NCBI GenBank assembly: GCA_029573725.1
Contig: JAKQDQ010000042.1
Span: forward strand, 250,777-314,776
DNA length: 64,000 bases
Source of the DNA: Verrucomicrobiota bacterium
GTDB taxonomy: Bacteria > Verrucomicrobiota > Verrucomicrobiia > Limisphaerales > JADLHS01
Reading direction: 5' to 3'
Positions 57,224-58,819 of this stretch are shown in pieces. The notes under the pieces are model-generated. The model was not told where the DNA came from. It did no database searches and worked only from the letters and a program-made list of their open reading frames with translations. A program made the position numbers and the translations under genes. Within the stretch, counting starts at the first letter, position 1; each line of letters opens with the position of its first letter.

Positions 57224-58819
57224 TCACCCGCGGGTGCGCCGGCCGCGCCGGAGGGGAGGTGGGCCCAGCACCTCGCCCACCGCATCGTGCAACGCGGCGA
57301 CCATGCGTGCGACCTGCGTCGCAGTCGTGCAATAAGGCGGCATCAGCACGAGGACATTGCCGATGGGCCGCGTGAGCACGCCGCGCCGCGCCATGGCCTC
57401 GCAGACGCGAATGCCGGCACGCTCCCGCAGGTCGAAAGGCTCGCGCGTGCGCCAGTCCTTGACCAGTTCAATCCCGGCAATGAGTCCGACCTGCCGGATG
57501 TCCCCGACGTGGGGCTGCGACCAGAGTGACGTGAGTGCCCCGGCCAGCGCCGGCTCCAAGATGGTGCGGGATTGAAGCGATGGCCTGCCTTGCAGAATCT
57601 CCAGACTTGCCAGCGCCGCGGCGGCACCCAGTTGGTTGCCGGTGTAGCTGTGGCCGTGGAAAAAAGTTTTGAACTCGTGATACTCGCCGAGGAAGGCGTC
57701 GAAGACGCGCTGTGTGGTCAACGTCGCCGCCATCGGTAGATAGCCGCCCGTGAGTCCCTTGGCGAGACAGAGGAAATCGGGTTGCACGCCTTCGTGGTGG
57801 CAGGCAAACAGCGTCGGACAGGCGTCGCGCCTGTCTCTGACTTGATGTTCCGGGTGAGCGGTCCGCGAAGAGTTTGAGGCAGGCGCGACGCCTGTCCGAC
57901 CAAAGCCGGTCATCACCTCATCGGCGATGAGCAGTGCGCCATGACCGCGCGCGATGTCGGTCACGCGTTTCAGCCAGCCCGAGGGTTGCGGAATCATTCC
58001 CGCTGCGCCTTGCATCAGTGGCTCGAAGACGAATGCGGCGTAAGGATTGCCACGTTTCTTTTGCGCGGAAAATTTCTGCTCCACCTTGCCGACACATTCC
58101 CAATTGCATTGGCGATATTCGCGGGCGTCGGCGCGCTCGGGCTTCGCTCTGTTGAACGGGCAGCGGTAGCAGTACGGCGACATCACTCTGTCGGTTTTGA
58201 AAAGCATTCCGCCGTAGGTTTTGTGGAACAGATCAATGTGCCCTAGGGAGACGGCGCCGATGGTGTCACCGTGATACGCGCCGTCGAGGGAAAGAAACTT
58301 TGGCTGGGGCGGGGCTGCTGACGAGCCGGCCCGCGCGGAAGCTCGCCCCGCCATGCTGGCGCGAGAGCGGCGGGTGAACTCGTAGGCGAGCTTGAGCGCG
58401 ACTTCGAGCGCGGTCGAGCCGTTGTCGCTGAAGAACACTTTATTCAGATGGGGCGAGGCTGCTGACGAGGCACGCCCGGCTCGCGCGGACGCTCGCCCCA
58501 CCGCTTTGGGGTTGGCCAGCTTTACCAGTTCCGCTGCCAGCAAACTCGCGGGCTCATTCGCAAAACCCAGCGCCGAACTGTGCGCGATTTTCTTCAACTG
58601 TCGGATGATGGCGGCATTGATTTTCGGGTGCTGATGGCCGTGCAGATTTGTCCAGATGGAGGCGTTGGCGTCGAGATAAGTTTTGCCGCGCAGGTCGTGC
58701 AGCGTTGCACCCCTGGCCGCGGTGATGAGGATGGGCTCGTGCTTGATCCAGTCCCGCATTTGCGTGAACGGATGCCAGACGTAGGCGCGATCAAGTTGAA
58801 CAAGCGGAGGCAGGGCCAT
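57224..58819 (-). CDS. bioA: Adenosylmethionine-8-amino-7-oxononanoate aminotransferase carrying three extra in-frame peptide segments
   Basis: VWHPFTQMRDW; FFSDNGSTALEVALKLAY; LDGAYHGDTIGAVSLG; ADEVMTGFGRTG; FLCLAKGLTGGYLPMAATLTT; HGHSYTGNQLGAAAALASLE. Extra segments VGRASARAGRASSAASPH, MAGRASARAGSSAAPP and VAPASNSSRTAHPEHQVRDRRDACP. Confidence 0.95.
   Translation of the reverse strand: MALPPLVQLDRAYVWHPFTQMRDWIKHEPILITAARGATLHDLRGKTYLDANASIWTNLHGHQHPKINAAIIRQLKKIAHSSALGFANEPASLLAAELVKLANPKAVGRASARAGRASSAASPHLNKVFFSDNGSTALEVALKLAYEFTRRSRASMAGRASARAGSSAAPPQPKFLSLDGAYHGDTIGAVSLGHIDLFHKTYGGMLFKTDRVMSPYCYRCPFNRAKPERADAREYRQCNWECVGKVEQKFSAQKKRGNPYAAFVFEPLMQGAAGMIPQPSGWLKRVTDIARGHGALLIADEVMTGFGRTGVAPASNSSRTAHPEHQVRDRRDACPTLFACHHEGVQPDFLCLAKGLTGGYLPMAATLTTQRVFDAFLGEYHEFKTFFHGHSYTGNQLGAAAALASLEILQGRPSLQSRTILEPALAGALTSLWSQPHVGDIRQVGLIAGIELVKDWRTREPFDLRERAGIRVCEAMARRGVLTRPIGNVLVLMPPYCTTATQVARMVAALHDAVGEVLGPPPLRRGRRTRG
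57813..57900. repeat. 88-bp palindromic repeat element inside bioA (21-bp perfect arms, each arm itself a small hairpin)
   Basis: GTCGGACAGGCGTCGCGCCTG (57813-57833) is the exact reverse complement of CAGGCGCGACGCCTGTCCGAC (57880-57900); each arm contains ACAGGCG-TCG/CGA-type internal symmetry. Confidence 0.93.
58306..58349. repeat. Repeat copy A inside bioA (44 bp; GGGGCGGG...CTCGCCCC)
   Basis: Aligns with 58450-58499 with few substitutions and one 6-nt gap; translated in the same frame as ASMAGRASARAGSSAAPPQP. Confidence 0.9.
58450..58499. repeat. Repeat copy B inside bioA (50 bp; GGGGCGAG...CTCGCCCC inverted ends)
   Basis: Aligns with 58306-58349; perfect 8-bp inverted ends; translated in the same frame as VGRASARAGRASSAASPH. 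Confidence 0.9.

What the first reader, a model, noticed from the sequence alone, without database searches (positions are those of the whole stretch)
57813..58499. Three in-frame repeat-encoded peptide insertions in one enzyme gene (bioA), from two repeat families
The bioA frame stays open through three extra segments that interrupt otherwise recognisable BioA blocks. VGRASARAGRASSAASPH precedes KVFFSDNGSTALEVALK. MAGRASARAGSSAAPP precedes the KFLSLDGAYHGDT block. VAPASNSSRTAHPEHQVRDRRDACP lies between GFGRTG and TLFACHHEGVQPDF. The DNA underneath is two copies of one repeat plus one palindrome of a different family. None breaks the frame, and the 6-nt length difference between copies A and B is a codon multiple. 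This resembles protein-coding palindromic elements (the Rickettsia RPE precedent), but in a non-Rickettsia, apparently Verrucomicrobiota, background. I cannot say whether it has been described.
Basis: partly seen in the sequence, partly recalled or inferred. Interest (0 to 1): 0.88.

Follow-up and report, generated by a model that had tools for sequence, protein, structure and literature searches.

The report
Mobile DNA repeats inside working genes
In this little-studied bacterial order (Limisphaerales, Verrucomicrobiota), short repeats that look like jumping DNA sit in the reading frame of a biotin-making enzyme and of many other core genes without breaking them, and close relatives even carry the probable jumping enzyme itself inside their DNA polymerase gene.

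Summary
Confirmed. The bioA ORF (57224-58819, minus; TIGR00508 above cut-off, the only bioA found in the genome) carries three in-frame segments: A 58450-58499, B 58306-58349 (one palindromic family) and C 57813-57900 (a REP dimer). B. subtilis BioA lacks all three. Related copies occur elsewhere in the genome, often in frame in conserved genes: leuS (x2), thrC, argJ, mfd, an MqnE-family gene, probably mutY. A third repeat lies in bioF, leuS, thiC (x2), purM. Family C is a GTAG-type REP found in 43/96 relatives (reversed control about zero). Across about 240 BioAs the same three loops hold different peptides; the third holds about ten repeat classes, and C there needs about 33 changes on a BioA tree. 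In same-family genome G006, C copies avoid genes no more than control positions (75% vs 77%). There a RAYT transposase flanked by C repeats lies in frame inside a DinG/YoaA helicase. Related RAYTs lie in frame in dnaE and other genes; 107 of the 120 best database hits are internal. Best explanation: REP-type mobile elements inserting in frame at permissive loops. Works like Rickettsia RPEs; C meets most GTAG-REP criteria but is not mainly extragenic. I found no report of the clade-wide pattern or of in-frame RAYTs.

The parts
57224..58819 (-). bioA, adenosylmethionine--8-amino-7-oxononanoate transaminase, 531 aa, open through three inserts
   Evidence: TIGR00508 429.8 bits > 405; PF00202; core dN/dS roughly 0.1-0.15 against seven relatives; best fold match B. 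subtilis BioA 3du4
58450..58499 (-). Repeat A, copy 1 (50 nt, outer arms GGGGCGAG../..CTCGCCCC); encodes VGRASARAGRASSAASPH (residues 107-124, nt 58448-58501)
   Evidence: gap in 3dod; AF2 coil, pLDDT<50
58306..58349 (-).
   Evidence: gap in 3dod; AF2 coil
57813..57900 (-). Repeat C: dimer of two inverted GTAG-type REPs (arms 57813-57842 and 57871-57900, tag here GTCG) with 28-nt spacer; encodes VAPASNSSRTAHPEHQVRDRRDACP (residues 311-335, nt 57815-57889). The conserved R308-T309-G310 of GFGRTG lies inside the REP head
   Evidence: I3; fold z -7.97; genome copies; AF2 coil, mostly pLDDT<50
58791..60008 (-). bioF, 8-amino-7-oxononanoate synthase, neighbour of bioA
   Evidence: TIGR00858 436.9 bits > 426.45
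59045..59077 (-). Repeat D (heptamer run GAATGCGGAGTGCGGAAT) read in frame in bioF as LNSALRIPHSAIPSAI; occupies a normal-length loop (replacement, little net insertion)
   Evidence: alignment to 8s1y

Best explanation
The three segments are copies of dispersed, REP-like mobile/repetitive DNA elements that landed inside bioA and were kept because they are read through in frame and fall in surface loops. SHOWN: (1) the elements are multicopy here and in relatives; (2) copies lie in frame in unrelated conserved genes; (3) the three bioA sites hold different repeat-encoded peptides, or nothing, in relatives; (4) family C has REP anatomy (GTAG tag, hairpin, inverted dimer), and in a same-family genome a RAYT (Y1 HUH transposase) gene is flanked by C repeats, this whole unit lying in frame within a helicase gene; (5) related RAYTs lie in frame in dnaE and other genes. 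INFERRED: a RAYT of this subfamily moves or moved C dimers (REPINs) by single-strand transposition; copies that are stop-free and a multiple of three at tolerant loops survive purifying selection; the inserts are translated as disordered loops that leave BioA active. The family-A mobiliser is unknown; family D looks like a short tandem-unit repeat rather than a transposon.
For: Own-genome in-frame copies with curated gene identity: leuS x2 (C) plus D; thrC (C); argJ, mfd and an MqnE-family gene (TIGR03700, 429.5 vs cut-off 434.55) (A); a further weaker A-type match in mutY; thiC x2, purM, a menaquinone-type UbiD decarboxylase and vsr (D); net insertions against solved structures for leuS, thiC, purM and argJ. 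C pattern in 43/96 relatives, A pattern in 37/96, reversed controls near zero. BioA inserts match unrelated DNA of other genomes in 29/239 cases versus 3/239 for core segments, Fisher p = 1.2e-6, using only DNA not fetched by repeat patterns. C at bioA site 3 in two registers (RTGVAPVS..DRRDACPT; RVGQASxLS..LEACPT) and about 33 parsimony changes on the BioA tree. A second BioA clade (38-41% identical) has insert-free and insert-bearing sisters at the same loop. G006: 75% of sampled C copies in ORFs >=300 aa versus 77% of control positions, in nuoL, ksgA, larC, rtcB, trpD, glnS, lolD. RAYT flanked by C repeats in frame in dinG/yoaA; RAYT, REP dimer, REP-like array or no insert at one dnaE point in different species. 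Embedded RAYTs fall in one 100/99 clade.
Against: No RAYT flanked by C was found in the window's own genome (three full RAYTs there are flanked by other repeats or none), so the mobiliser is inferred from relatives. Family A has no identified mobiliser. Target-site duplications were not demonstrated. Translation of the inserts and BioA activity are untested. In G054 family A is mostly intergenic (18% in long ORFs versus 76% of controls), so the tolerance is lineage- or family-specific. The AF2 model has only moderate confidence (pLDDT 71).
Confidence: 0.88

Rival explanations
1. Ordinary family variation: these are naturally variable, fast-evolving loops of Limisphaerales BioA whose sequences only happen to look repetitive in GC-rich DNA.
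For: All three sites are variable-length loops in 110-240 orthologues and some contents look native (e.g. VTCHVD.. at site 3).
Against: The window's own segments have multiple close matches in unrelated genes of the same genome; insert DNA matches unrelated DNA about ten times more often than core DNA; the same repeat families recur in leuS, thiC, purM, argJ and mfd.
Confidence: 0.05
2. Pseudogene or assembly artefact: bioA is decaying or the contig is misassembled at repeats.
For: The genome is a fragmented assembly of 187 contigs.
Against: A 531-aa homologue with 98% identity, a cluster found on 13 contigs, carries identical inserts (P0001); dN about 0.12-0.16 versus dS about 1.0-1.4 in the core; conserved motifs are intact; the bioA-bioF neighbourhood is intact; independent assemblies show the same phenomenon.
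Confidence: 0.03
3. Selected function: the inserts are kept because they do something, for example REP hairpins acting in the mRNA, or the peptides mediating interactions.
For: The same loops are used recurrently by many families; REPs are proposed to act as RNA elements (PMC3733652).
Against: Contents, lengths and families turn over between close relatives, and empty sites are common; insert columns evolve fast (pN 0.4-0.7 versus core 0.11-0.15), as expected for tolerated filler.
Confidence: 0.12
4. No current transposition: the segments are old insertions, inherited and reshuffled by gene conversion between repeats.
For: No C-flanked RAYT in the window's genome; C copies there are few; L042 and L044 share a related C spacer at the same site, i.e. 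some inheritance.
Against: Many parsimony changes on the BioA tree and different registers; many identical C units in G006.
Confidence: 0.25

Closest known systems
GTAG-tagged REPs / REPINs and intragenic REPs of Opitutus terrae and others (Di Nocera et al. 2013, PMC3733652)
   Same: GTAG tag, 20-40 bp hairpin, inverted dimers with spacers, RAYT association, copies within genes of a verrucomicrobium
   Different: There most REPs are intergenic; here family C in G006 shows no avoidance of genes, several unrelated repeat classes use the same protein loops, and RAYT genes themselves sit in frame in host proteins
Rickettsia palindromic elements (RPE; Ogata et al. 2000/2002 as summarised in PMC10969869)
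   Same: Palindromic repeats inserted in frame into unrelated metabolic genes, encoding extra peptides
   Different: Different phylum, shorter units (44-88 nt against about 150 bp), several reading frames used instead of one conserved peptide frame, GTAG-REP anatomy, RAYT link; no sequence comparison with RPEs was made
MITE-generated in-frame fusions in general (review PMC10969869)
   Same: Non-autonomous elements fusing with host ORFs
   Different: Family C shows REP hairpin anatomy rather than classical terminal inverted repeats; no target-site duplication shown
Inteins (for the in-frame RAYTs only)
   Same: A protein-coding mobile element in frame in conserved sites of DnaE and helicases
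   Different: No intein domain appears among the Pfam/NCBIfam hits; no evidence of protein splicing

Membership tests
GTAG-tagged REP (family C) | GTAG (or GYRG/GTGG) tag next to the hairpin | tested here: met
   GTAGGACAGGCGTCGCGCCTGTC-type copies dominate in relatives; the bioA copy has degenerate GTCG
GTAG-tagged REP (family C) | 20-40 bp imperfect palindrome, often as inverted dimers | tested here: met
   inverted arms at 57813-57842/57871-57900; z = -7.97
GTAG-tagged REP (family C) | high copy number in the genome | tested here: met
   8+8 matches in G000 (modest), about 100 per strand in G006, 167+143 in G095, reversed control 0
GTAG-tagged REP (family C) | mainly extragenic | tested here: not met
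   G006: 75% of sampled copies in ORFs >=300 aa versus 77% of controls
GTAG-tagged REP (family C) | flanks a RAYT gene | tested here: met
   met in G006 (L240: C repeats on both sides of a RAYT); not found in the window's genome
Rickettsia palindromic element | in-frame insertion of palindromic repeats in unrelated conserved genes | tested here: met
Rickettsia palindromic element | sequence homology to an RPE family | not tested
   no RPE sequence was fetched; 'works like', not 'is'
Rickettsia palindromic element | one conserved reading frame / peptide per family | tested here: not met
   C is read in at least two frames at the same bioA site
REPIN | two inverted REPs with short spacer, mobilised by a RAYT | tested here: inconclusive
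   anatomy met; mobilisation only inferred, from G006
Intein (for in-frame RAYTs) | Hint self-splicing domain | tested here: not met
   no such domain among Pfam/NCBIfam hits

The most novel reading that the evidence does not exclude
Limisphaerales host a class of REP/RAYT mobile elements adapted to living inside protein-coding genes: the RAYT transposase is carried in frame within essential proteins (DnaE, DinG/YoaA and others) and its repeats spread in frame into loops of many core enzymes, so host proteins are continuously remodelled by mobile DNA and the transposase is made as part of, or from within, a host protein.
Probability: 0.65. Interest if true: 0.93.

Novelty: new variant of a known kind. 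Interest (0 to 1): 0.87.

Why it matters
In-frame palindromic insertions were described as a near-peculiarity of Rickettsia and as scattered REP cases; here they look common across a bacterial order and hit replication, translation and cofactor enzymes. One loop of one enzyme (BioA, after GFGR) has been filled repeatedly by about ten repeat classes, giving a natural insertion-scanning experiment with empty-site controls. It makes the old question whether selfish DNA builds protein sequence directly testable, and the in-frame RAYTs in DnaE and DinG suggest that transposons can use a niche otherwise associated with inteins.

Tried and rejected
A first AF2 model from 38 close homologues failed (pLDDT 39); a second from 109 diverse homologues was usable (pLDDT 71). 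An A-type sequence was sought beside RAYT genes and no A element was found flanking one. The first insert-versus-core BLAST test was spoiled by unmasked duplicates, the second partly biased by pattern-fetched loci (37 vs 3 of 239); only the unbiased rerun (29 vs 3) is relied on. That the elements are selected to be stop-free in all frames was considered and rejected: A and B are open in 5 of 6 frames and C in 3 of 6, close to the random means of 4.1 and 3.0. The D segment in bioF was first taken as an insertion; it is a replacement of a normal-length loop. Literature searches for Verrucomicrobia/Limisphaerales intragenic repeats and for in-frame RAYTs found only PMC3733652 as directly relevant.

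Full report
OBSERVATION. The minus-strand ORF 57224-58819 is bioA (TIGR00508, 429.8 bits over a cut-off of 405; PF00202) and the only bioA match found in the 4.28-Mb assembly at E <= 1e-60. The three peptides lie at residues 107-124, 156-171 and 311-335. Alignment to B. subtilis BioA 3dod leaves gaps at these three places. The DNA under sites 1 and 2 is one family (50 and 44 nt, 6 nt apart in length); under site 3 it is an inverted repeat with 30-nt arms, a very stable hairpin (z = -8.0).

MULTICOPY. Pattern searches of the window's genome find close relatives of C, A and a third repeat, D, elsewhere. In the 96 relatives searched, GTAGGACAGGCNNCNNGCCTGTC (up to 2 mismatches) occurs in 43 genomes, up to 310 hits in one, and GGGGCGAGCNTCCNCGCGAGCC in 37, while the reversed patterns are nearly absent. 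The clade is Limisphaerales (Verrucomicrobia subdivision 3), judged from named orthologues.

IN-FRAME ELSEWHERE. Reading the surroundings and scanning the ORFs places copies in frame inside leuS (two C dimers and one D; TIGR00396, 978 bits), thrC (single C), argJ, mfd and an MqnE-family gene (A; TIGR03700 429.5 bits, just under its cut-off of 434.55), possibly mutY (a weaker A-type match), thiC (two D), purM, a menaquinone-type UbiD decarboxylase, vsr and a DUF58 gene (D). Comparison with solved structures shows net insertions in thiC, leuS, purM and argJ. In bioF the D peptide replaces a loop of normal length. Some copies lie outside recognisable genes. These are pattern-search counts, not a census.

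THE THREE BIOA SITES ARE RECURRENT. In 110 orthologues, and in 120 further BioA proteins, these same loops vary in length and content. Site 3, between GFGR(TG) and LFA, holds C-type peptides in two registers (RTGVAPVS..DRRDACPT and RVGQASxLS..LEACPT), A read in another frame (GGARLLTSRLA), other repeat-like peptides (SAGVPPA..RRDACAT, ANVSSRL..PRSHER, ADVRRL..EPPHVG, AVCDRR..DGHRPPLQ, EKGRKGEKV..PAPF, SRLQAE..GGTPN and oligonucleotide runs), or nothing (the classes are my regular expressions, and only A, C, D and a few others were checked as DNA repeats). At the DNA level C sits at this site in G000, G002, G089, G063 and, as a single unit, G016. On a BioA tree of 243 sequences C at this site needs about 33 changes (shuffles mean 43, minimum 36; labels are regex-based, 52 sequences unclassified, branches weak). 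A second BioA clade, 38-41% identical, has insert-free sisters (P0133, P0137, P0149, P0151) and repeat-bearing ones at nearly the same loop; Opitutales-type BioAs of about 459 aa have none. Insert DNA matches unrelated DNA of other genomes in 29 of 239 cases, core segments of equal length in 3 of 239 (p = 1.2e-6).

FUNCTIONAL GENE. Core dN is 0.12-0.16 with dS about 1.0-1.4 against seven relatives, while insert columns evolve much faster. A moderately confident AF2 model (pLDDT 71, pTM 0.79; model numbering is one lower than the protein because the start codon was left out) has the BioA fold (best match 3du4) and places the inserts in coil, with pLDDT mostly below 50 for sites 1 and 3. In this copy R308-T309-G310 of GFGRTG lie within the REP head, so the element either supplied or matched the conserved motif; which of these happened is not resolved.

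GENES ARE NOT AVOIDED IN THIS FAMILY. In G006 (same family) 28 sampled C hits lie in ORFs of at least 300 aa as often (75%) as positions 900 bp away (77%); hosts include nuoL, ksgA, larC, rtcB, trpD, glnS, lolD, hybrid histidine kinases and an FtsX permease. Some hits are the two halves of one dimer, and a long ORF is only a proxy for a gene, so the curated hits carry the weight. In contrast, family A in the more distant G054 is mostly outside long ORFs (18% versus 76%), which also shows that the test can detect avoidance.

THE LIKELY MOBILISER. In G006 two C repeats flank a RAYT gene (HUH motif PNHVH and a candidate tyrosine; Y1_Tnp PF01797 above its cut-off; NF047646 62.6 bits, below its cut-off of 80), and this whole unit lies in frame inside a DinG/YoaA helicase ORF of 986 aa. 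Relatives of this RAYT sit in frame in dnaE (G006 1564-aa frame, G010 1531 aa, G013), in dinG/yoaA of G045, in a UDPGP-like protein of G009 and G044, in an EcoEI-type helicase of G052 and in an Eco57I-type methylase of G045. The dnaE copy is the only DnaE1-level match in G006 and G010; the other strong matches score at DnaE2 level. At one dnaE point (DVNES..FAPA | IRFGLAAIKG) the window's genome has no insert, G009 a C-type REP dimer, G045 a repeat array and G006/G010/G013 a RAYT. All nine in-frame RAYTs fall in one 100/99-supported clade of 11. In the 5.8-billion-protein library 107 of the 120 best hits hold the RAYT internally, with more than 100 aa on both sides; hosts include DnaE, Rad3/DinG helicases, MetH-like proteins and DUF1156 proteins, some named as Planctomycetota or Methylococcaceae. 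That search only admits long proteins, so it says how such long hits are built, not how common they are among RAYTs.

MECHANISM. C dimers look like REPINs moved in trans by a RAYT of this subfamily; survivors are those in frame and in tolerant loops. Transposition itself, target choice and translation are inferred. The window's genome has three full RAYT genes without flanking C, so its C copies may be relics. Family A has no known mobiliser.

COMPARISON. Di Nocera et al. (PMC3733652) define GTAG REPs, report dimers, REPtrons and intragenic copies, the most in Opitutus terrae. Family C meets the tested criteria except being mainly extragenic. RPEs (summarised in PMC10969869) are the functional precedent; membership was not tested by sequence. 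I found no report of order-wide, multi-family in-frame insertion in Limisphaerales or of RAYTs in frame in essential genes; the library lacks most subscription papers.

Noticed in passing
window 59045-59077 (bioF): A third repeat (heptamer run GAATGCGGAGTGCGGAAT) is read in frame in bioF as LNSALRIPHSAIPSAI, replacing a loop of normal length; the same repeat is in leuS, thiC, purM and others of this genome.
   Followed up: yes
L293, L318, L296 (dnaE of G010, G006, G013): A RAYT transposase lies in frame inside the DNA polymerase III alpha gene at the same point; in G010 and G006 this is the only DnaE1-level gene found.
   Followed up: yes
L240/L291 (G006:C22) and L292 (G045:C168): RAYT in frame inside a DinG/YoaA helicase; in G006 it is flanked by C-type GTAG repeats.
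   Followed up: yes
L294, L295, L305, L319; proteins P0245, P0251, P0273, P0277: RAYTs also occur in frame with UDPGP-like, EcoEI-type, Eco57I-type, AlaRS-related, MetH-like and DUF1156 proteins, some named as Planctomycetota or Methylococcaceae, so the habit reaches beyond Verrucomicrobiota.
   Followed up: partly
L323 (G045 dnaE): The dnaE site holds an array of about 113 aa of EQASSLLGGDVKGLQSPQLEQAGRTVLP-like units in frame.
   Followed up: partly
L152, L153, L155 (window's genome): RAYT or RAYT-like genes flanked by other repeat arrays (CCGTCCCGGAGGGACGG; GATGTCGCTCCTGACGGAGC-like; CGCCGGACGCCGTTACGGCGCC), unrelated to family C.
   Followed up: partly
L261-L290 (G054): Family A reaches 111 hits (at most one mismatch) in G054 but sits mostly outside long ORFs there, unlike in the window's genome.
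   Followed up: partly
L207 / P0121-P0157: A second BioA clade, 38-41% identical, shows repeat insertions a few residues beyond the GFGR motif, with insert-free close sisters.
   Followed up: yes
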